DNA from: Pelagibius sp. Alg239-R121
GTDB lineage: Bacteria; Pseudomonadota; Alphaproteobacteria; Kiloniellales; Kiloniellaceae
NCBI RefSeq assembly: GCF_947331435.1
Contig: NZ_CAMZOF010000006.1
Location: 496,001-560,000, forward strand
DNA length: 64,000 nt
Reading direction: 5' to 3'
Shown: one piece after another, positions 6,234 to 51,030 of the stretch
Numbering within the stretch: position 1 is the first letter of the stretch
How the letters are laid out: the number at the start of each line of letters is the position of its first letter
Program-made: the position numbers and the translations under genes
Notes under the pieces: generated by a model
Told to the model about the DNA's origin: nothing
The model's input: only the letters and a program-made list of their open reading frames with translations
The model's database searches: none

Positions 6234-6743
6234 GTGAGATTTATCGGAACGATATTTGTATGTCTTGCCACGCTCGGGCTGGCGGGCTGTGCGTCGAAAG
6301 AACCAACCACCAACGAAGTGATCGAAGACCAGCTGAGCGGACCTGAATTTCGGACCGTGGAAACCGATCAGGGCGTTGTCGTCATGTTGGTCAATCCGCT
6401 CTTATTTGCCTTCGACAGCGATGAACTGACCGAAGAATCCCGGAATCCCATCGCCTATATCGCACGTGTGCTGAATACGCCGGGTGTCCAGTCGCGGCAG
6501 GTTCACGTCAACGGCTATTCCGACAGTGTCGGCAACGAAGACTATAATTTGGATCTTTCCCGGCGGCGCGCCGAGGCCGTTGCAAAGGAATTGGTCTACA
6601 ACCAGGTAGCGGCCGAGCGGGTTCTCTACAACAGCTTCGGAGAAGCCAATCCGATTGCCCCGAACGTCACCGATGACGGCAGCGACAATCCGGAAGGACG
6701 CACGCTGAACCGGCGGGTTGAGATCGTAATCCTGAACCCATGA
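6234..6743 (+). CDS. OmpA/Pal-type peptidoglycan-associated lipoprotein
   Basis: A 169-residue lipoprotein with signal MRFIGTIFVCLATLGLAGCAS (lipobox LAGC) and a C-terminal OmpA-like domain. The domain shows the family core, including VNGYSDSVGNEDYNLDLSRRR and a final NRRVEIVIL. OmpA-like domains bind the diaminopimelate of peptidoglycan, so the protein probably tethers the outer membrane to the wall. Translation appears to start at GTG 6234, because the signal peptide begins exactly there. It stands alone between sodB and a small membrane protein and is not the tol-pal gene by context. Confidence 0.85.
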   Translation: MRFIGTIFVCLATLGLAGCASKEPTTNEVIEDQLSGPEFRTVETDQGVVVMLVNPLLFAFDSDELTEESRNPIAYIARVLNTPGVQSRQVHVNGYSDSVGNEDYNLDLSRRRAEAVAKELVYNQVAAERVLYNSFGEANPIAPNVTDDGSDNPEGRTLNRRVEIVILNP

Positions 6744-6988
6744 TGTAAGAATCAGTCTCTAGGTGACCTGACTTGTCGGCGAACCGAGGTTTTTCTCCCG
6801 GTAATGTTGCTTAGTTTGCGTGAGGACGCGGCTATGGACTTGCGATGCTTGTAGCCGTTCTTTCGCATTCGGTTGCCACCTGATCTCTACCGTCATTTAC
6901 AAACCATAGCAGGGGTTCGTGAAAGATCGTAAATCTGGCCCTTGTCCTGAAACTCGATTCTGCTGCCATTTTGTATTTTATTCTGGCA

Positions 6989-7351
6989 ATGCAGGTCCGT
7001 ATGGGTTTTCCACCGTTCTACCGGCGTTTTATGTCCGCGCCTATTCTTCCAGACCCAACCGCGGGCGACTCGGCAGAACTCGAGAGAGTAATCAAATTAC
7101 TTCTGCCTGTTGGCTTTGGAATGATTGGGGTTGCAGCCCCCTCCATTTTCCTTGAGTGGCCAGGTTCCTTTCTGATTATTGGCTGTATTGCGATATGGGG
7201 AGGCGTAAGGTTGAGACAGGATTTGCGCAGAACTATTGGCGGTCCCCTTCCGTGGATTGAGAACAGATGGACTTTGAAATGGCCCATGCTTGTGTTTGAC
7301 GTCTGGACTCTGACTTTCAGTTTAGCCGTTGTACTAATTCCGATGCTTTGA
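6989..7351 (+). CDS. Small predicted membrane protein of unknown function
   Basis: I do not recognise the family. The protein of about 120 residues has two or three hydrophobic segments: roughly one at LLLPVGFGMIGVAAPSIF, one at FLIIGCIAIWGG, and a C-terminal one at LTFSLAVVLIPML. Between them lies a basic loop (RLRQDLRR). Several starts are possible: TTG at 6971 and ATG at 6989, 7001 or 7031. I give 6989 as a compromise, and none has a strong ribosome site. About 225 bp downstream (7352-7577) show no gene. It could be a poorly conserved lineage-specific gene. Confidence 0.45.
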   Translation: MQVRMGFPPFYRRFMSAPILPDPTAGDSAELERVIKLLLPVGFGMIGVAAPSIFLEWPGSFLIIGCIAIWGGVRLRQDLRRTIGGPLPWIENRWTLKWPMLVFDVWTLTFSLAVVLIPML

Positions 7352-7577
7352 ACATCCAGCCTAGAATGATAGCGCGCGAGAATGCTCTGCAAGCTCTTGG
7401 CAGTGTTCTTTCTTTAGACAACTGATATCACCGACCGCATCCAGAGATACACTGCGAATCAGGAGGTCTCGCACATCACTGCTCGCCCTCCGCTTGTTAA
7501 CAGCGCCTGGTGATTCGATTGCGTTTAAGTATCTGGATGTCTTCTTGAAGACCTTTGGCCCAGCCTAGTCAGGGAGA

Positions 7578-7952
7578 TCACTCGATCGCGATCAAGGCAG
7601 CCGCGACGGCACGCCCCTCAGCAAGCAGAACATTGTAGGTCCGGCAGGCCGCCCCGGTATCCATGGGTTCGATCGAGACGCCGTGTTTACGCATTTCACC
7701 GCGAAGTTCCGGCGTGATCATCTGCATGCGGGTGCCGCAACCGACAAGCAACACTTCGATCTGTCCCGATGCCGTTACCGGCATTAGCGACTGGGCGGTC
7801 AGTTCCTCAAAGCCTGAGATTGGCCAGGCTTCGCTTCTGTCGGGGAAAACGATCACTGAGCCCTGAAACTGATGACCGCTGACCTTGAACTGCCAGTCGC
7901 CATAACTTTCCACGACCTGCCGGTCTTTTGGGACTGCGAGCGAGATTTCCAT
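7578..7952 (-). CDS. Mth938-like (DUF498) domain protein, NDUFAF3 homologue
   Basis: A 124-residue protein with the Mth938/DUF498 fold; the middle carries LLVGCGTRMQ and the C-terminal half has GVSIEPMDTGAACRTYNVLL. The mitochondrial member NDUFAF3 is a complex I assembly factor. In alphaproteobacteria the gene is commonly found just downstream of secF, as here, where 53 bp separate it from secF on the same strand. It is probably co-transcribed with yajC-secD-secF. The bacterial function is inferred only from the mitochondrial homologue. Confidence 0.85.
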   Translation of the reverse strand: MEISLAVPKDRQVVESYGDWQFKVSGHQFQGSVIVFPDRSEAWPISGFEELTAQSLMPVTASGQIEVLLVGCGTRMQMITPELRGEMRKHGVSIEPMDTGAACRTYNVLLAEGRAVAAALIAIE

Positions 7953-8005
7953 AGATCTCTCCCGATTCTCAGGTGTTTTCAGGCGTGACCGCTACGGCTC
8001 TTTTT

Positions 8006-8950
8006 TTACGAAGCTGCTGGAGCCGCCTGTTCGGCCTTGTCCGGGCCGTCGCTTACACCGACGCGAATGTTCATGTACGACAGGATCGGCACGGCCAGCG
8101 CGACGGAAGAATAAGTCCCGATGATGACACCCCAGATCAGCCCCATGCTGAATCCGCGAATCACCTCGCCGCCGAAAATGAACAGCGAAAACAGTGCCAA
8201 AAGGGTCGTGACCGAGGTTAGGACCGTTCGCGACAGTGTTCGGTTGATGGACATGTTCAGCACTTCGGTGATTGCCAGCTTTTTGTATTTACGAAGCTCG
8301 TCGCGGACGCGGTCGAAAATCACGACCGTATCGTTGATCGAATAACCTGCAATCGTCAGAACCGCCGCGAGAGTCGAAAGATTGAATTCGACCTGGGTCA
8401 GCGAGAAAAAGCCCACCGTCGCAATCACGTCGTGCAACAACGCAACCAGGGCGGCTGCAGAAAAGTGCCATTCGAAACGGAACCAGATATAAAGACCGAT
8501 AGCGCCCAGGGCGAGAACGGTTGCCAGGATACCGGCCTCCTTGAGTTCTCCACCCACTTTCGGGCCGACAAACTCTGTCCGGCGGTACTCCACCACATCG
8601 CTGCCAAGTGCTTCCTTGACCAGCTGAATCGCGGCTTCCTGCGCGCCTTCTCCACCGTCCTGCTTTTGAATATTGATAAGCACGTCGGTTGGCGCGCCAA
8701 ACTCCTGCAGGGTGACCTCGCCGACATCCAGGGCTGACAGGCGGCTGCGCAGATTACCGAGGTCGGCGGGACCGTCGGTGCGCACCTCAAGCAGGATACC
8801 GCCGCGAAAATCGACACCGAAATTCAGGCCGAGTGTCGCGAACGAGATCACCGACCCCAGCATCAACAGCGCAGAAAAAGCCAGGAACAGCTTGCGCTTC
8901 GACATGAAATTCAGCTTCGGCGCGACGGGAAAGAGTTTAATGATAGCCAT
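8006..8950 (-). CDS. secF: Protein translocase subunit SecF
   Basis: SecF pairs with SecD to use proton motive force to pull exported proteins through SecYEG. The 314-residue product has the N-terminal membrane helix with FGVDFRGG, a periplasmic P1 domain, and five more membrane helices containing LTIAGYSINDTVVIFDRVRDE, the SecDF/RND signature. It follows secD by 10 bp and belongs to the yajC-secD-secF operon. Length and motifs are complete. Confidence 0.97.
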   Translation of the reverse strand: MAIIKLFPVAPKLNFMSKRKLFLAFSALLMLGSVISFATLGLNFGVDFRGGILLEVRTDGPADLGNLRSRLSALDVGEVTLQEFGAPTDVLINIQKQDGGEGAQEAAIQLVKEALGSDVVEYRRTEFVGPKVGGELKEAGILATVLALGAIGLYIWFRFEWHFSAAALVALLHDVIATVGFFSLTQVEFNLSTLAAVLTIAGYSINDTVVIFDRVRDELRKYKKLAITEVLNMSINRTLSRTVLTSVTTLLALFSLFIFGGEVIRGFSMGLIWGVIIGTYSSVALAVPILSYMNIRVGVSDGPDKAEQAAPAAS

Positions 8951-41104: not shown

Positions 41105-42352
41105 TTATCGCGCAATTCGCCGCTCAGCGACGATATCAGAGAGGGTCAGCGCAGGCCGAATGAAGGGGGGACTTGGCGAAGCAACATGTGTCCGGCTGTT
41201 CTGCGTCGCAAGATCAATGGATCCGTCATCCAGCAAGGTCGAGAGCGCATTGTCGACACGCGTTAGCAGTTCACTGTTCCGGGCAAGCATGGCAACGCCG
41301 ATATTGAAGGAAATCGGATGGCGGTAGGTGCTGAGCCGGAGGCTCGTGATCGGATTCTGGCGGCGATGAAAATCATAGGCAGGAAGGGAGATCAAAGCGG
41401 CGTCGAATAAACCGTTCTCCATTTTCCACAGGAAGCCAGGGCCCGGCGGATAAGTCACTGCGGATGCCACAACAGGTCGTGGGGCCTGCTTGACCGTGAG
41501 AACGCCTGCGAGCGTTCCCTGTTCGATCCCCACTTTCAGGCCCTGCAGGTCATTCAGCTGGTTTATTTCCTTTTCGCCATGTTTGGCCGCCAGAACAACG
41601 CCCATTTCAATCCGGCCATAGGGACGAGAAGCCGAAATCGCCTGCAAGTCCACCTGATGCCCGGATGGCAGGTTTTTAGGCCTGTCGTGCCAACGCGGTA
41701 ACGCCGCCCTGGCGGATGGGGGATCTCCGAGAGCATTTTCATAGAGTGCGTAGCCGGGCGCGATGTCGCAGAGGCCATGGGCAAGGAGGGCATAGACATC
41801 CCGGACCGGATCGCTCTCCTCCTCGAGTTCACCTTCATACCACGTGGTCTCAAGCGACAGCCCGAGCTTGTCGGCCAAAAGGCGCGAGACGTCGTAATCG
41901 AAGCCTGTCCCGCCCTTGTGCCGTGCGCCTGACATGATCCCGCCATTTCGGGGGAGACAGACGGTCAGGGTGTCACTCACTATCAGTTCAGACGCCGTGG
42001 ATGTCTGCGGGGTCTCCAAGCGTGATTGCTTACCGGCCGGCGCAAGCTTTGTGCCGTTTTGCGTGATGACGTAATACCAGACCGCCTCGAGTTCTTCCGG
42101 ATAGAGAATGTCACCCCAGGCCGGCATGTCGCCCCTGCCCTTCATGACAGATTCGACGAAACGTTCCTTCTGATCGCCGGGAAACTTCCTGAGATCGTAT
42201 GAGCCGGTTCCCGGATTGACCATGTTGAGTCCATGGCAATGGGAACAGAACTGTTTATAGACCGACGCGCCTTTCTTGGCCGCCTCATCCGCGAAGGCAG
42301 CTGGCGATAAGAATATCGCCAGCCAGGCAAGAAACGGAACCGCAGCCTTCAT
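41105..42352 (-). CDS. Cytochrome c fused to a XoxJ/MxaJ-like periplasmic binding protein
   Basis: The 415-residue product has a signal peptide (cleavage near AFADEA) and a class I cytochrome c domain at about residues 25-100, with haem motif CSHCH (Cys36, Cys39, His40) and a likely axial Met76 in GDMPAWG. From about residue 126 it continues into a substrate-binding-protein domain of the type encoded beside PQQ methanol dehydrogenases (XoxJ/MxaJ), ending near residue 405. In known xox loci the cytochrome (XoxG) and XoxJ are separate proteins. The gene begins 6 bp after the dehydrogenase stop. It probably accepts electrons from that enzyme and helps its activation. Confidence 0.85.
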   Translation of the reverse strand: MKAAVPFLAWLAIFLSPAAFADEAAKKGASVYKQFCSHCHGLNMVNPGTGSYDLRKFPGDQKERFVESVMKGRGDMPAWGDILYPEELEAVWYYVITQNGTKLAPAGKQSRLETPQTSTASELIVSDTLTVCLPRNGGIMSGARHKGGTGFDYDVSRLLADKLGLSLETTWYEGELEEESDPVRDVYALLAHGLCDIAPGYALYENALGDPPSARAALPRWHDRPKNLPSGHQVDLQAISASRPYGRIEMGVVLAAKHGEKEINQLNDLQGLKVGIEQGTLAGVLTVKQAPRPVVASAVTYPPGPGFLWKMENGLFDAALISLPAYDFHRRQNPITSLRLSTYRHPISFNIGVAMLARNSELLTRVDNALSTLLDDGSIDLATQNSRTHVASPSPPFIRPALTLSDIVAERRIAR

Positions 42353-42358
42353 AGGTGC

Positions 42359-44035
42359 TCAATTCCCACCGAGTGCGAAGGTCCATACGGCACCGCCCGG
42401 AGGGAACTGGGCCAGGCGTTCGTCGCCGGAAAAGAGTACATAAACCGCGCCGCCGCCGTTCAGGACTGTGACGTACTGCTTGCCGTCCATCTCCCAGGTG
42501 ACAGGTTGACCGACGACTCCCGAGCCGGTCTGGAACTCCCAGAGCTTCTCTCCGCTTTCAGCGTTAAACACTTCGAATTCCCCGGACTGAGCACCGGTGA
42601 AGACAAGGCCGCCGTCAGTGGAGAGAACACCGGCAAATCTTGGGATTGCGGAACCGGCCGTCCACTTGGATTTTCCCGTCATCGGGTCGATCGCGCGCAG
42701 ATGACCGCGGTCTCCCTCCGGCCAGGACCAACTGAACTCAGCACCGAAGTAAAACACGCCGGCCCGGTATTGAGGCTCGACGGCCTTGTAGTTCATACCG
42801 ATATTCAGGGTATTTGCGTAAGCCAGACCCGTCGTCGGGTTGAAGGACATCGGCGACCAGTTCTTGCCGCCGAAGGCTGAAGGCCAAAACTCCACCTGCT
42901 CGCCGCTGCGCGCCTTCGCTGCCGTTTCCGTCTGGTTTGGTTTACCCGTGGTCAGATCAACGCTGGTCGCCCAATCGACCCGGTCCACGAAGTGGTTCGC
43001 CGCAATGAGATCGCCTTTCTCCCGGTCGAGCACATAGAAGAAACCATTGCGATTGGCCTGCATCACGACTTTTCGTCCGTCGATTTCGGTCAGGACCAGT
43101 TCATTCGTGCCGTCGTAGTCGAAGGGATCGTTCGGTGTGAACTGATAATGCCACTTTATGCTTCCAGACTTGGGATCCAGTGCCAGCATCGAACCGGTGT
43201 AGAGATTGTCACCCTGCCGGACACCCGCGTTCCATGGTCCAGCGTTTCCGACCCCCCAATAGACGGTGTTCAGTTCCGGATCGTAGGTCCCGGTCAGCCA
43301 AGCCGGCCCGCCGCCATTTTTCCAGGCATCGCCTTCCGGCCAGGTTTCGCCGCCCGGCATGCCGGGCTCGGGAATGGTGTAAGTCCGCCACAAGCGCTCG
43401 CCATTCTCAGGATTATACCCTTCGATATAGCCGCGGATGCCGTATTCGCCGCCGGAGATGCCAACGATCAACACGCCGTCCGCGATGAGCGGTGCGACAG
43501 TCATGGAATAACCGGTGCGGAAGTCGATGGACTGAGTCTTCCAGACCTCTTCACCGGTCTTCGCGTCCAGCGCCACCACATGGGCGTCGAGCGTGGTACG
43601 GAAGATTTTGCCGTTTAGGATGGCGGCACCACGGTTCACGATACCGCAACAGGCGACCCGGGGTGTTTCCGCCGGGTATTCCAGCATCGTTTTCCATAGC
43701 TGCCGGCCGGACTTTGCATCCAAGGCGACGGTCGCTTCATGGGTTGTAACGTACATCACGCCTTCATGAATGAGCGGATGGCTTTCCTGCCCCCGGTCGC
43801 TCACCAGCGAATAGCTCCAGATCGGTACAAGCTTGCCGACGGTTTCGGTATTGATTTGATCGAGCGGACTGTGCCGGTTCTGATCGTAACCCATGCCGTA
43901 GGTCAGGATATTGCCGGGCGTGGTCTTGTCCGCCGCGAGGTCATCAAGTGTCTGCGCAGCAGCGCCCTGAGCGATAAGCGCTGCGGCGGCAGCGCCTATT
44001 ATGCCGGTCGCAGTTTTCCCCCATCCGGATTTCAT
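42359..44035 (-). CDS. PQQ-dependent alcohol dehydrogenase with lanthanide-type active site (XoxF-like)
   Basis: A periplasmic quinoprotein with signal peptide (cleavage near GAAAQT) and the eight-bladed propeller of alcohol/methanol dehydrogenases. The vicinal Cys129-Cys130 pair is present (RVACCGIV). Metal and PQQ ligands appear as Glu197 (SGGEYGIRGY), Asn264 (GNAGPWN) and Asp306 (PFDYDG). Asp308, two residues after Asp306, is the extra acidic residue found in lanthanide-dependent enzymes; calcium-dependent MxaF has Ala there. At 558 residues it is slightly short for the family. The substrate could be methanol or another alcohol. No pqq biosynthesis gene is visible in the window. Confidence 0.88.
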   Translation of the reverse strand: MKSGWGKTATGIIGAAAAALIAQGAAAQTLDDLAADKTTPGNILTYGMGYDQNRHSPLDQINTETVGKLVPIWSYSLVSDRGQESHPLIHEGVMYVTTHEATVALDAKSGRQLWKTMLEYPAETPRVACCGIVNRGAAILNGKIFRTTLDAHVVALDAKTGEEVWKTQSIDFRTGYSMTVAPLIADGVLIVGISGGEYGIRGYIEGYNPENGERLWRTYTIPEPGMPGGETWPEGDAWKNGGGPAWLTGTYDPELNTVYWGVGNAGPWNAGVRQGDNLYTGSMLALDPKSGSIKWHYQFTPNDPFDYDGTNELVLTEIDGRKVVMQANRNGFFYVLDREKGDLIAANHFVDRVDWATSVDLTTGKPNQTETAAKARSGEQVEFWPSAFGGKNWSPMSFNPTTGLAYANTLNIGMNYKAVEPQYRAGVFYFGAEFSWSWPEGDRGHLRAIDPMTGKSKWTAGSAIPRFAGVLSTDGGLVFTGAQSGEFEVFNAESGEKLWEFQTGSGVVGQPVTWEMDGKQYVTVLNGGGAVYVLFSGDERLAQFPPGGAVWTFALGGN

Positions 44036-44233: not shown

Positions 44234-44803
44234 TCAGCGGCCCTGATTGTGATAATCGGGGTTTGGAACCATACCGACAGCGCTTGCCAAGCGGTTCGAC
44301 ATATTGAAGAAAGAGGCGATTGCTGCGACATCCCAGATGTCTGGATCGCTTAGACCGGCATTGCGTAGATGCTGCCGGTCGGCCTCTTCAATCGCACCAC
44401 TCGAGAGGGTCATCTTAAGAGAAAAGTCCAATATTGCGCGCTCACGAGGCGTCAGATCGGCCATGCGGTAATTCATCACCAAAGCCTCACCCAATTCTGG
44501 CTTGTCTGAGAGCACCCGCACAGCCGCGCCATGAGCGACCTGGCAATACCAGCAGCTATTTTGGGCCGAGATAACGACGGCAATCATCTCTCGTTCAAGT
44601 TTCGAAAGATTCGAGGGGCCAAGCATCAGATCATTATACATCTGCCCGAATGCAGCCAGCTTTGCCGGGTTAAAGGCGTAGGCGACGAGCACATTGGGAA
44701 CCAGCCCAAGCTTTTCCTGGCATTTTTCAAACAGCTCCGACACTTCTTCGGGCAAGGGATCAGGCAAGGGCAGGTCGAGTGCCGTCGTTTTGGGGTGCTC
44801 CAT
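44234..44803 (-). CDS. AhpD/CMD-family peroxidase-related protein
   Basis: A 189-residue helical protein of the carboxymuconolactone decarboxylase/AhpD superfamily. The redox motif is SCWYCQVAHGAAVR (CxxC plus His), as in alkylhydroperoxidase-like proteins. The DPDIWDVAAIASFFNMSNRLA segment matches the uncharacterised peroxidase-related subfamily. It lies about 200 bp upstream of the xoxF-like gene on the same strand and could be co-regulated, but the spacing suggests its own transcript. Confidence 0.85.
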   Translation of the reverse strand: MEHPKTTALDLPLPDPLPEEVSELFEKCQEKLGLVPNVLVAYAFNPAKLAAFGQMYNDLMLGPSNLSKLEREMIAVVISAQNSCWYCQVAHGAAVRVLSDKPELGEALVMNYRMADLTPRERAILDFSLKMTLSSGAIEEADRQHLRNAGLSDPDIWDVAAIASFFNMSNRLASAVGMVPNPDYHNQGR

Positions 44804-45702: not shown

Positions 45703-45778
45703 TCCGCGGTAGCTCAGTTGGTAGAGCAGGTGGCTGTTAACCACCTTGTCGCAGGTTCGAGTCCTGCCCGCGGAGCCA
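45703..45778 (+). tRNA. tRNA-Asn (GUU)
   Basis: A 76-base cloverleaf with acceptor stem TCCGCGG/CCGCGGA, D-arm AGCTCAGTTGGTAGAGC, anticodon GTT in CTGTTAACC, T-arm AGGTTCGAGTCCT, discriminator G and encoded CCA. The DNA just after it changes from core genes to phage-like genes, so it is a likely integration site. Confidence 0.97.
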
Positions 45779-46572: not shown

Positions 46573-47055
46573 TCAGCCCCTCAGCGTTCGCTTAACATCA
46601 GCCAGTGTCTTACCAAGCTGCGCAGCTATGGCGGCATGAAGGCGATCAAAGCGGCGGCTCTCCTGACATGACCGGTAGGTGAGGTTATGAGCCTTACGAC
46701 TGGCGAACCGTGGCGGGCTCCCCGCGAAGTGAAGCTTACCGACACGCTCGAATGTGACCGGACAGATGAACCACCAGCGCTTGCCGCCGCTGGCCAAGGT
46801 TGTCTGTATGAGCTGGACCTCTTGGACCATGGGCTTGCCTCGACACGAGAAGTCCAGGCGGATGTGTGGATAGCCAGCGCTGTAGACCATCGCACTATAG
46901 CTGATACTGGATCCGCTCGGCCAGGAGAGGCTGCCCGCCGTGTGCGAATCCTTGCCTAAGACGCCAAGTCGCTTCAGATCGAATATCGATAGCGTGAGCG
47001 TATCTTCCACCGCAGTCTTCGGGCATCTGGTCGGCCCGCTGCCATATCCGCCCAT
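46573..47055 (-). CDS. Uncharacterised protein with N-terminal GGYGSG and degenerate zinc ribbon (paralogue 1)
   Basis: A 160-residue protein beginning MGGYGSGPTRCPKTAVEDTL. The second half has RWWFICP followed by FASRKAHNLTYRSCQES. In the better-known relatives this half is a zinc ribbon with paired Cys residues (CPxC and FACRxC). Here all but the first Cys of the pattern are replaced, so zinc binding is probably lost. It is clearly paralogous to 47847-48359, with the RWWFICP and FASRKAHNLTYRSCQ blocks shared. It is the last gene of the minus-strand cassette. Function unknown. Confidence 0.65.
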   Translation of the reverse strand: MGGYGSGPTRCPKTAVEDTLTLSIFDLKRLGVLGKDSHTAGSLSWPSGSSISYSAMVYSAGYPHIRLDFSCRGKPMVQEVQLIQTTLASGGKRWWFICPVTFERVGKLHFAGSPPRFASRKAHNLTYRSCQESRRFDRLHAAIAAQLGKTLADVKRTLRG

Positions 47056-47084
47056 TTCCAGATTTCCTAAATCATTAAGAAAAG

Positions 47085-47423
47085 TCAGTTCCAGTAGGTG
47101 GTCAATCCAGACCTCAAACCCTTGGGCTGCATGCGCTTGAATAGCGATATCGCCCGGTCTGCTGCGTGCCTGGCTCGTGGTGTCGTGAAAGCTCCGGGGC
47201 CGGCCTCGAGAAGGTCATCTACGAACAACTGTTCGCGGAGTTCGCAGACCTTGAGATAGCGCTCGCGGAACTCCGGGTATTGGTGGAACCATCTGGCGAT
47301 TGTCTTCGCCGACGGCATATTAGGTGCCTTGCAGATCTGGCTGATGCTCTTGAACTCCATCAGACCGTCAATCAGCCGCTCTTCCACAGCTTTGGAGAAT
47401 TTGCTTGGTCTTCCGCCCGGCAT
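47085..47423 (-). CDS. Phage terminase small subunit-like protein, short
   Basis: A 112-residue protein with N-terminal GGRPSKFSKAVEERLIDGL, an HTH segment (ISQICKAPNMPSAKTIARWF) and YPEFRERYLKVCELRE. This is the layout of phage terminase small subunits, which recognise packaging DNA. The C-terminal oligomerisation region is shorter than usual and ends soon after RAISLFKRMQPKG, so the gene may be truncated. No large terminase subunit follows. It is preceded by overlapping very small ORFs. Confidence 0.6.
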   Translation of the reverse strand: MPGGRPSKFSKAVEERLIDGLMEFKSISQICKAPNMPSAKTIARWFHQYPEFRERYLKVCELREQLFVDDLLEAGPGAFTTPRARHAADRAISLFKRMQPKGLRSGLTTYWN

Positions 47424-47498
47424 TTACCAGCCCTCACGCACAGAGTGCCCACCGCGCCCGCGCGCGTGAAATTGTCGCGAAACTCGCTGCAGTGTCAT
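47424..47498 (-). CDS. Possible 24-residue micro-ORF in cassette
   Basis: An ATG that overlaps the stop of the 39-residue gene upstream by 4 bp opens a 24-codon frame (MTLQRVSRQFHARGRGGHSV...) that ends immediately before the ATG of the terminase-like gene. It may only serve translational coupling. Confidence 0.3.
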   Translation of the reverse strand: MTLQRVSRQFHARGRGGHSVREGW

Positions 47499-47614
47499 GT
47501 GCCCCATGTCGGTGTTATATCGAAAGCAATCGCCAACAAGGCGCCCATGCTCAGGATCACAACGGCCGTAAACGCCGTGTCCCGCCAGAAATACGGTTTT
47601 CGTCGCCTGCTCAT
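47495..47614 (-). CDS. Small single-pass membrane protein, 39 residues
   Basis: The frame begins MSRRRKPYFWRDTAFTAVVI and has one membrane helix (about residues 12-32) after a basic N terminus, so the N terminus should face the cytoplasm. Its ATG overlaps the stop of the 78-residue gene by 4 bp (ATGA), and its own stop overlaps the next start. Overlaps on both sides support it being real. Function unknown. Confidence 0.5.
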   Translation of the reverse strand: MSRRRKPYFWRDTAFTAVVILSMGALLAIAFDITPTWGT

Positions 47615-47847
47615 GATTGTTGGCCCTCTGCTCTCTGTTCGATCTCCCGCTTGAGCTCGACAATGCGCCGCTCATACTCGGCAATAAGGTCCTCTGGTGA
47701 GGCCTCGACCGGCTGCAGGCCATTTGGCACCTTTGAAGGCGAGCAGCGCTCCATGGCCTCCTGGCCGCCTTTCTCGAAGTCCTCGACAACTGTTTTCTTG
47801 AAGAGCTTCATTAGACCCGCGCGATTGGTGCTGGGCTTTGCTTTCAT
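47611..47847 (-). CDS. Small phage-type protein with C-terminal coiled coil, 78 residues
   Basis: The product begins MKAKPSTNRAGLMKLFKKTV and ends in a predicted coiled coil (LIAEYERRIVELKREIEQR). I do not recognise a characterised family. The ATG at 47847 shares one base with the stop of the GGWGSG paralogue (TGATG), so the two are translationally coupled. A longer frame upstream on the same strand is only the shadow of the preceding gene. Confidence 0.55.
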   Translation of the reverse strand: MKAKPSTNRAGLMKLFKKTVVEDFEKGGQEAMERCSPSKVPNGLQPVEASPEDLIAEYERRIVELKREIEQRAEGQQS

Positions 47848-48359
47848 CAGACAAGTCCCTCTTGTTTCAGTGCCGCTTTGAGCATGGTTGGCTCGGCGTC
47901 GGATATCGACATAAACAGCTTCATGATTGGGCTGATTTTGCCGCTGTCCTGACAGGATCGGTATGTGAGGTTGTGGGCCTTGCGGCTGGCGAAGTATGGC
48001 GGGCTCCCGGCAAGGAACAGCTTCCCTGCCCGCTCTCCGGAGTCGGGACATATGAACCACCATCGGACTCCGCCGTAATGACAGGGCGTTGAATCCAGCA
48101 ACACGATATCCATCATAGATTGGCCGTTCAGTCCGTAGCGCAGGTAGATCTTGGAATTGCCCTCGCCGTACATGTGGGCTTCGAAGGCGATGCATTGCCC
48201 CCAGCCTATAGCCGCCTCTCCCTTGGTCGTGCCGAAGCGATCGAAGGCGCCGGCCTCGTTCAGGTTGAAGACAGATATCTCCGGCGTGTCGTCCACCGTC
48301 TGTTTTGGATGTAAGGTTGGTCCGCTACCCCAGCCGCCCAATGCCACAATCTCCTTCAT
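47847..48359 (-). CDS. Uncharacterised protein with N-terminal GGWGSG and degenerate zinc ribbon (paralogue 2)
   Basis: A 170-residue protein with MKEIVALGGWGSGPTLHPKQ at the start and GGVRWWFICP and FASRKAHNLTYRSCQDS later. It is the paralogue of 46573-47055, and both share the loss of most ribbon cysteines. The two copies bracket a block of four smaller genes, which suggests duplication of a module or a recurrent cassette. It is the first gene of the minus-strand cassette, about 230 bp from the divergent HAD gene. Function unknown. Confidence 0.65.
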   Translation of the reverse strand: MKEIVALGGWGSGPTLHPKQTVDDTPEISVFNLNEAGAFDRFGTTKGEAAIGWGQCIAFEAHMYGEGNSKIYLRYGLNGQSMMDIVLLDSTPCHYGGVRWWFICPDSGERAGKLFLAGSPPYFASRKAHNLTYRSCQDSGKISPIMKLFMSISDAEPTMLKAALKQEGLV

Positions 48360-49669: not shown

Positions 49670-50182
49670 ATGCGAGTTATTTCGCCGCTTGCCGCCTTAG
49701 GCATGGGACTGATTGTTTTGAGTGCGTGCGCCCAGAAACCGGCGCCGAACCAGCAGCCTGTTACGGCAAGCACCGCTACAGAATCCTCCGCCAAGACTGG
49801 CACAGACTGGCTCCATGAAGAGCTGATGGTAAAAATTTTAAAACAAAAAATTATCTCAGTTGGAATTGGATCGAATCACAAGAAAGGCGATCCAAATCCT
49901 TATCGCGAAGGTATGCGTGGCTCTGCCCACAAAGCGCTATCAGCTTGCTTGGTTTGGGACCTGGAGAATGTATCCGTGACATATAAGCGAGCGCACATGG
50001 GAGGAGGCTCGGATCAGTCCAATGCCGAGTTCGTGGCCTTGAGAAACTGTCGGAATAAGAAGCGACAATTTCAGTATGACTGTACTTGTCAGCTAATTGA
50101 CAGTGATGACGAGAACGTGCTCAAGGTGCCGGCCGACTTCCTTGCGAAGTATGAGAAGAAGTTCAGAGCTTCGACGGAATAG
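49670..50182 (+). CDS. Lipoprotein of unknown function
   Basis: The 170-residue product has a lipoprotein signal peptide (MRVISPLAALGMGLIVLSACAQ, lipobox LSAC). A Pro/Thr/Ser-rich spacer and a globular domain follow, the latter with four Cys (CLVWDL, LRNCRN, YDCTCQLI) that may form disulfides. I do not recognise the family. The ATG at 49670 is chosen because it starts the signal peptide. It is 14 bp upstream of the membrane-protein gene at 50197, so the two probably form an operon. Confidence 0.6.
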   Translation: MRVISPLAALGMGLIVLSACAQKPAPNQQPVTASTATESSAKTGTDWLHEELMVKILKQKIISVGIGSNHKKGDPNPYREGMRGSAHKALSACLVWDLENVSVTYKRAHMGGGSDQSNAEFVALRNCRNKKRQFQYDCTCQLIDSDDENVLKVPADFLAKYEKKFRASTE

Positions 50183-50196
50183 TGTTCTTGGACTGA

Positions 50197-51030
50197 ATGG
50201 CAAATTGGAGAGATGCGTTGGGGGACGCTAAGAAGTTTGCAAAAGAGATTCTATCGATAGCATTTGCGACTCCAGCAGCCTTAAGTTTACTAGCAAAGCT
50301 GGATAGTCGCTTAGAATTTACACCAGCAATCGAGAGAATCGTTCTTAATTTTGACGCATTGTCGAAATATTTATGGGAATATTTTTCGTTTTTGATTAAT
50401 TTTCCATTAACGCAATACATTGATCATTTATCACTATCGTTTTTATTGCTTCTAATAATGCCTATTTTGTTTCATTGTGTAAAAAACAGGCGATTTACTA
50501 TTAATATCAACCTTTTGTCCTATAAATTACACGATATAACGAGATGGCAAATAATAATTGTGGCACTTCCAGTAATATATTTTACGATTATTTTCGATGC
50601 TTATTTTATCGTTATTATGGTGATCCTAGCTTCTAGCACCTCGAGTGCACAATATTTAGCAGAAAAATATTTATCTCGAAAATACAATTTAGGAAATGAA
50701 ACTACAAAATTGATCGCGGCACTTATTGGCATTGCTCCCCTAGTCGTGACTTTTTTTGTGATTACGTATATCTTCGAAAAATACAAGTTGATAGACAAAG
50801 GGTTTTCTATTTTTCTAGGCCCGGCATTTTCTAATAATCCTGGTTTAAATACGATCGCAGATGTTCTTTATATATTGACGTTGATATTATTAATTTTGAT
50901 ATATGTAACCCGACAACTGAGATCTGTTGCCTACGCCTTCTTATGGGCCACCGGTGTGATTGCCGTCAATTTTGTCGCCGGAACATTGATCCCGGGGATA
51001 GACGCTTTTTTAACCAAAGCAGGTGCCTAG
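50197..51030 (+). CDS. AT-rich multi-pass membrane protein of unknown function
   Basis: The 277-residue product has about six hydrophobic segments, for example LSFLLLLIMPILFHCV, IIIVALPVIYFTIIF, LIAALIGIAPLVVTFFVITYIF and ILTLILLILIYV. The DNA is visibly richer in A+T than its surroundings and uses codons such as ATA and TTA that are rare in the core genes, which points to recent transfer. I cannot assign a family. It follows the lipoprotein gene by 14 bp. Confidence 0.6.
   Translation: MANWRDALGDAKKFAKEILSIAFATPAALSLLAKLDSRLEFTPAIERIVLNFDALSKYLWEYFSFLINFPLTQYIDHLSLSFLLLLIMPILFHCVKNRRFTININLLSYKLHDITRWQIIIVALPVIYFTIIFDAYFIVIMVILASSTSSAQYLAEKYLSRKYNLGNETTKLIAALIGIAPLVVTFFVITYIFEKYKLIDKGFSIFLGPAFSNNPGLNTIADVLYILTLILLILIYVTRQLRSVAYAFLWATGVIAVNFVAGTLIPGIDAFLTKAGA

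What the first reader, a model, noticed from the sequence alone, without database searches (positions are those of the whole stretch)
41105..44035. Lanthanide-type PQQ dehydrogenase paired with a fused XoxG-XoxJ protein
The dehydrogenase carries Asp306-Tyr-Asp308 at the active site. The second Asp is the residue that separates lanthanide-dependent XoxF and related enzymes from calcium-dependent MxaF, which has Ala there. Six base pairs downstream is one gene whose product joins a cytochrome c domain (CSHCH, residues 36-40) to a XoxJ/MxaJ-like binding-protein domain (about 126-405). In described xox operons the cytochrome and XoxJ are separate. The fusion would hold the electron acceptor and the putative activation factor together.
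Basis: partly seen in the sequence, partly recalled or inferred. Interest (0 to 1): 0.75.

Follow-up and report, generated by a model that had tools for sequence, protein, structure and literature searches.

The report
Fused cytochrome–activator beside a lanthanide-type dehydrogenase
A bacterium carries an alcohol-oxidising enzyme of the rare-earth-metal kind next to one gene that joins its likely electron-accepting cytochrome to its presumed activation factor; such a fusion was already known from one group of methane eaters, but here it belongs to a different enzyme branch, which suggests that the two partners really work side by side.

Summary
The two genes are as described: a 558-aa PQQ dehydrogenase with Asp306-Tyr-Asp308, and, 6 bp downstream, a 415-aa protein joining a cytochrome c to a periplasmic binding-protein domain. 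Three corrections. (1) The enzyme is not XoxF: it lies in a 21-row clade sister to ExaA + PedH; all 21 rows keep the extra Asp. The same genome also has a canonical, separate xoxF-xoxG-xoxJ set. (2) XoxG-XoxJ fusions are already in print (cytochrome cGJ / XoxG:J of Methylacidiphilum). (3) The second domain is outside the XoxJ/MxaJ models; profile searches favour amino-acid-binding proteins, yet it shares a Cys pair with XoxJ-like proteins (18/18 and 12/12; 0/12 amino-acid binders), and 17 of 18 lack an Arg found in 12 of 12 amino-acid binders. The order dehydrogenase–cytochrome–J is old: cytochrome and J are separate in 12 of 12 outgroup genomes and 8 of 14 named relatives, fused in 6 of 14 plus the window. 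An opposite-order fusion (J–cytochrome) occurs in 3 of 385 genomes of the class beside another dehydrogenase clade. Repeated fusion suggests that acceptor and J act together. Lanthanide use and activation are inferred, not shown.

The parts
42359..44035 (-). PQQ-dependent alcohol dehydrogenase, 558 aa, signal-peptide-like start; D306-Y-D308, E197, N264, C129-C130
   Evidence: TIGR03075 655 bits; best solved relatives 6zcv 468 and 6zcw 462 bits; residues and tree
41105..42352 (-). fused cytochrome c / J-like periplasmic binding protein, 415 aa
   Evidence: one ATG frame; cytochrome and binding-protein matches; same fusion in 6 of 14 named relatives
42056..42295 (-). cytochrome c domain, about residues 20-99, haem motif CSHCH 36-40
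   Evidence: PF13442 at 24-95, E 1.8e-12
41105..41986 (-). J-like binding-protein domain, residues 123-415; Cys132 and Cys195 are the Cys pair shared with XoxJ-like proteins
42353..42358 (-). 6-bp gap between dehydrogenase stop and fusion start, consistent with one transcript
   Evidence: read

Best explanation
A two-gene periplasmic alcohol-oxidation module. The dehydrogenase, an ExaA/PedH-side enzyme with a lanthanide-type D-x-D site (shown by sequence; metal not tested), oxidises a small alcohol (ethanol-like more likely than methanol; inferred) and passes electrons to the cytochrome domain of the partner (inferred). The partner's J domain, an XoxJ/MxaJ-like binding protein without the Arg of amino-acid binders, most likely holds the apo- or partly loaded dehydrogenase while PQQ and metal go in, and, being tethered to the cytochrome, keeps the electron acceptor docked (inferred). 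The fusion is derived: dehydrogenase, cytochrome and J were adjacent separate genes, and cytochrome and J merged within one alphaproteobacterial line (outgroups shown; a single origin is not rejected but not proven). The window genome probably received the module horizontally (inferred from patchiness only).
For: Dehydrogenase clade of 21 rows at 100/100, sister to ExaA+PedH at 100/97, 21 of 21 with Asp at +2. 14 of 14 named relatives have the dehydrogenase directly upstream, L011 cut by the contig end. In 12 of 12 outgroup genomes cytochrome and J lie in different frames; in 11 of 12 the dehydrogenase is beside them. Representatives L010, L016 and L005 also carry TIGR03863/03864, TIGR03866 and TIGR04557, families named for PQQ alcohol dehydrogenase or quinoprotein systems. 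Cys pair in 18/18 J and 12/12 XoxJ-like, 0/12 own amino-acid binders; the binders' Arg in 12/12 binders, 0/12 XoxJ-like, 1/18 J. Dehydrogenase and MxaJ chains share PDB entry 9ism. pqqC is in the genome. A reverse-order J-cytochrome fusion stands beside another dehydrogenase clade.
Against: The J profile finds amino-acid-binding proteins first (AncQR 67.6 bits) and XoxJ 6onp 51st, 28.1 bits. Of 17 J members, 11 match the lysine/arginine/ornithine binding model TIGR01096 and 9 TIGR03871 at E 0.01; the window member scores 19.3 bits against a TIGR03871 cut-off of 212. One J (L108) has Arg at the binder position. D-x-D also occurs in a characterised membrane glucose dehydrogenase (passage of PMC11996626). 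No structure could be predicted. GC content gives no sign of recent transfer. Activation by XoxJ/MxaJ is itself a proposal in the passages seen.
Confidence: 0.66

Rival explanations
1. The second domain is an ordinary amino-acid or other ligand-binding protein that happens to be fused to the cytochrome, with no part in dehydrogenase maturation.
For: Profile search ranks amino-acid-binding proteins first; for the window domain the cystine model gives 31.2 bits, MoxJ_2 19.3; L108 keeps the binder Arg.
Against: 17 of 18 J proteins lack the Arg of 12/12 amino-acid binders, and 18/18 have the Cys pair of XoxJ-like proteins. The flanking genes scanned in the window are an AhpD-type, a PIMT-type and a TolC-type protein, not an importer. 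The gene follows the dehydrogenase in 14 of 14 named relatives.
Confidence: 0.13
2. The J half is only a docking arm that holds the cytochrome to the dehydrogenase, as speculated for the J part of Methylacidiphilum XoxG:J, while activation is done by another J protein (here the XoxJ of the separate xoxF operon).
For: A passage of PMC6688271 gives that idea for XoxG:J, where a full xoxJ lies beside it; this genome has a canonical XoxJ, 297.7 bits on TIGR03871.
Against: Here the J half is 293 aa long and no second J lies next to it; outgroup genomes have a free J of the same family at this place.
Confidence: 0.15
3. The dehydrogenase uses calcium despite the Asp.
For: It is sister to a clade holding ExaA (Ser at +2) as well as PedH; D-x-D is reported in a characterised glucose dehydrogenase (passage of PMC11996626).
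Against: Asp at +2 in 21 of 21 clade rows; ExaA has Ser and the two MxaF-type rows Ala there.
Confidence: 0.15

Closest known systems
Cytochrome cGJ / XoxG:J of Methylacidiphilum (SolV, Kam1, V4)
   Same: One protein joining an acceptor cytochrome c to a J part beside a PQQ dehydrogenase (passages; the primary paper, Versantvoort 2019, is not held).
   Different: There the enzyme is XoxF, a separate xoxJ is in the operon and the fused J is described as truncated; here the enzyme is on the ExaA/PedH side, J is 293 aa and no other J is next to it. I had no sequence of it, so common or separate origin was not tested.
ped cluster: PedH/PedE, PedF (c550), PedG of Pseudomonas putida
   Same: Closest solved enzyme is PedH (6zcw, so named in PMC11845868; scores); same trio of enzyme, cytochrome and binding protein (passages of PMC12997753).
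   Different: PedF and PedG are separate genes; the window enzyme is outside the PedH/ExaA clade. PedG itself was not compared.
xoxF-xoxG-xoxJ operon (present in this same genome)
   Same: Same functional set.
   Different: Three separate genes; XoxF 1023 bits to 6oc5, XoxJ 229 bits to 6onp.

Membership tests
XoxF methanol dehydrogenase | falls inside the XoxF clade | tested here: not met
   sister to ExaA/PedH; XoxF and MxaF on another branch. XoxF rows of known name: 4mae (XoxF2), 6oc5 and 6dam (XoxF5; for 6dam recalled); no named XoxF1, 3 or 4 row
Lanthanide-type PQQ dehydrogenases (D-x-D) | Glu, Asn, Asp and a second Asp at +2 | tested here: met
   E197, N264, D306, D308; Asp at +2 in 21 of 21 clade rows
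Lanthanide-type PQQ dehydrogenases (D-x-D) | activity with lanthanide | not testable with these tools
   needs protein
ExaF/PedH | falls inside the PedH clade | tested here: not met
   sister group, 100/97; ExaF itself was not among the rows
XoxJ/MxaJ (TIGR03870/TIGR03871) | curated score cut-off | tested here: not met
   19.3 bits against 212 for TIGR03871; TIGR03870 not matched by the window member at E 0.01, by 2 of 17 members
XoxJ/MxaJ (TIGR03870/TIGR03871) | clade with XoxJ/MxaJ apart from amino-acid binders | tested here: inconclusive
   three separate groups in an unrooted tree of 48 rows
XoxJ/MxaJ (TIGR03870/TIGR03871) | Cys pair present (my own criterion) | tested here: met
   18/18 J, 12/12 XoxJ-like, 0/12 binders
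Amino-acid-binding SBP (SBP_bac_3) | conserved Arg after the first lobe (its role in ligand binding is recalled) | tested here: not met
   Asp in the window; Arg in 1 of 18 J against 12 of 12 own binders
XoxG:J / cytochrome cGJ | cytochrome c joined to J in one frame next to a quinoprotein dehydrogenase | tested here: met
   but the dehydrogenase is not XoxF

The most novel reading that the evidence does not exclude
Cytochrome c and J were fused at least twice in alphaproteobacteria, in opposite orders, and probably a third time in Methylacidiphilum, because J is not just a one-time chaperone but a standing part of the electron-accepting complex: one protein that loads PQQ and lanthanide into the apo-enzyme and then takes its electrons, so that only correctly metallated enzyme is ever coupled to respiration.
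Probability: 0.25. Interest if true: 0.65.

Novelty: new variant of a known kind. Interest (0 to 1): 0.45.

Why it matters
What XoxJ/MxaJ proteins do is still a proposal in the passages seen. Fusions made more than once, in both orders, tie J to the electron acceptor, and this one gives a natural single-chain construct in which activation and electron transfer can be tested together. It also marks a dehydrogenase clade with the lanthanide signature outside XoxF and PedH.

Tried and rejected
Rejected: 'first XoxG-XoxJ fusion' (already in print); 'XoxF'; 'plain XoxJ'; 'plain amino-acid binder'; fusion by sequencing error (seven genomes in frame). On the concatenated tree of 16 genomes (L011, L015, L105, L106, L108 left out) the fused rows are not one clade (2 changes), but one clade is not rejected (p-AU 0.253): one fusion, or one fusion and one later split, both stand. 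In the J tree (48 rows) the groups are unrooted and cannot say whether J is nearer XoxJ or amino-acid binders; a further AU test there (p 0.079) left out the MxaJ rows by a naming slip and is not used. Own hhalign scores: J-XoxJ 126.6, J-binders 107.4, XoxJ-binders 136.7: not decisive. GC of the two genes (0.58-0.59) is like 34-39 kb (0.56-0.60), so composition does not support recent transfer. Promoter and terminator counts are not clearly above shuffles. The plasmid collection has no match to the fusion; its 332 records with a dehydrogenase match (60 listed, all under 60% identity) were not put in the tree. Paper searches; none of their listings, nor the passages I read, showed this fusion or the reverse one outside Methylacidiphilum, but the library lacks most subscription papers. 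I recall, from no call, that Methylomirabilis may also have a fused XoxGJ.

Full report
OBSERVATION. The dehydrogenase (42359-44035, minus) and the fusion (41105-42352, minus) are real frames with a 6-bp gap. The dehydrogenase scores 655 bits on TIGR03075. E197, N264, D306, D308 and C129-C130 line up with the same residues of solved enzymes. The fusion has a cytochrome c domain (PF13442, 24-95) and a weakly recognised binding-protein domain.

THE ENZYME. Best solved relatives: 6zcv 468 bits and 6zcw 462 (6zcw is PedH according to PMC11845868), ExaA 1flg 409, a type II enzyme 1kv9 386, XoxF 6dam 349. The tree has 78 rows: 51 of the 77 matches listed (window and own XoxF included), 4 from G200, G293 and G363, 14 named relatives and 9 PDB chains; from 84 distinct rows six partial ones were dropped (L027, L029, L073, L081, L082, L083), and fragments under about 380 aa were never entered. 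The window row sits in a 21-row clade (100/100) sister to ExaA+PedH (100/97); XoxF and MxaF are elsewhere. All 21 carry Asp at +2 (DYD in 20, DHD in L009). Many rows outside XoxF and PedH also carry D-x-D, and PMC11996626 (outline and abstract, section 17, passages) reports the motif in 61% of 6,328 ocean PQQ dehydrogenases and in a characterised glucose dehydrogenase; so the Asp is a good but not sufficient sign of lanthanide use. PMC11845868 (passages) lists the PedH metal residues as Glu199, Asn281, Asp323, Asp325.

THE SAME GENOME. Two full TIGR03075 matches are present; a third match is weak. The other full one is XoxF (1023 bits to 6oc5) with separate XoxG (191 aa), XoxJ (320 aa; 297.7 bits on TIGR03871) and a CXXCW protein; pqqC lies about 16 kb from it on the same contig. 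The window locus is a second, distinct system.

DISTRIBUTION. Genomes with a match to the fusion, the window's own counted: 1 of 4 of the genus, 1 of 23 of the family, 1 of 61 of the order, 7 of 385 of the class sample, 8 of 398 of the phylum sample. A scan of named genomes gave 14 relatives out of 37 pattern matches; by their titles and the ranks printed, 11 are Rhodobacteraceae/Roseobacteraceae types, 2 Notoacmeibacteraceae or Phyllobacteriaceae, 1 Geminicoccaceae. Several genus names suggest the sea; habitat was not checked. The scan was seeded with the fused sequence, so fused relatives may be over-represented.

FUSED OR SEPARATE. Of the 14 named loci, 6 are fused (L004-L009) and 8 separate (L010-L017); L010/L011 and L013/L015 are near-twins. 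L009 has an extra free cytochrome before its fusion. In 12 of 12 outgroup genomes (G068, G030, G085, G200, G293, G363, G535, G577, G744, G768, G786, G455) cytochrome and J lie in different frames (for G085 read from match coordinates). In 11 of 12 the dehydrogenase is beside them; in G030 they lie beside genes that I read as pqqB, C, D and E, and its clade enzyme is on another contig. The fusion is therefore derived. Between window and five of its six fused relatives the cytochrome half is 64-71% identical, the J half 46-50%; the dehydrogenase is 66-78% identical over the 14.

THE J DOMAIN. Against solved structures a 17-row profile finds amino-acid-binding proteins first (67.6 bits) and XoxJ 51st (28.1 bits), whereas the genome's true XoxJ finds XoxJ and MxaJ first (228, 92, 86 bits). 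Residue marks separate it from amino-acid binders: a Cys pair in 18 of 18 J and 12 of 12 XoxJ-like proteins and in none of 12 own binders; and an Arg in 12 of 12 binders, none of 12 XoxJ-like proteins and 1 of 18 J (L108; Asp in the window). The 18 J leave out L011, L015, L106 and the later L123-L128; the 12 XoxJ-like are the 12 TIGR03871 matches; the 12 binders are 12 of the 18 PF00497 matches of the genome. The Arg column lies next to a J-specific insertion, so its alignment is less sure than that of the Cys. The Cys pair is also visible in 6onp, 9ism chain B and 5sv6. The domain is best called XoxJ-like, not XoxJ.

A SECOND, REVERSED FUSION. L085 (G073) encodes a 411-aa protein with a TIGR03871 match at 49-266 (93 bits, cut-off 212) followed by a cytochrome at about 319-406, next to a dehydrogenase that branches beside the XoxF/MxaF group (99/90). 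Of 385 class genomes 6 matched this protein; in 3 (G073, G134, G319) both domains are in one frame, each beside that dehydrogenase type; G078 and G128 matched by the cytochrome alone, a separate gene beside it; G286 by J alone. flags one TGA in the G319 match; in my translation it lies before the J domain, and J and cytochrome share one frame. The reverse J groups with XoxJ/MxaJ (99/89), apart from the window's J, so the two fusions are separate events.

KNOWN WORK. Fused XoxG:J is described in Methylacidiphilum (passages: PMC8498564, PMC8170126, PMC6688271). PedG is compared with XoxJ/MxaJ, and binding of partly folded apo-enzyme to help PQQ and metal insertion is reported as a suggestion (passages of PMC12997753; one study cited there is not held). 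Hence the window case is a new variant, not a first.

MECHANISM. Shown: gene adjacency, fusion, metal-site residues, family positions. Inferred: lanthanide use, ethanol-like substrate, cytochrome as acceptor, J as maturation and docking aid, horizontal gain. Not shown: any activity.

Noticed in passing
L085:2452-3687 (+), L119 about 7600-8730 (+), L120 about 7130-8260 (-): Opposite-order fusion: XoxJ-like domain first, cytochrome c second, directly after a PQQ dehydrogenase of a clade beside XoxF/MxaF.
   Followed up: partly
L009:5944-6333 and 6390-7652: A free cytochrome gene followed by the fused cytochrome-J gene: two cytochromes beside one dehydrogenase.
   Followed up: no
L105:4493-9020 (-) and L104:2021-6540 (+): Cytochrome and J genes next to genes that I read as pqq genes from their translations (no family search done), which would fit a role in PQQ loading.
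   Followed up: no
window 46573-48359: Phage-type terminase small subunit (47085-47423, PF20901, phrog_1482) between two similar-looking ORFs without a family match, near tRNA-Asn 45703-45778: possible phage remnant.
   Followed up: partly
window 50000-50999: GC falls to 0.38 against 0.52 just before and 0.47 just after.
   Followed up: no
window 44234-44803 (-): Peroxidase-related (AhpD/CMD) protein, 208 bits on TIGR01926, upstream of the dehydrogenase on the same strand; no match in the stretches held of the 14 named relatives.
   Followed up: partly
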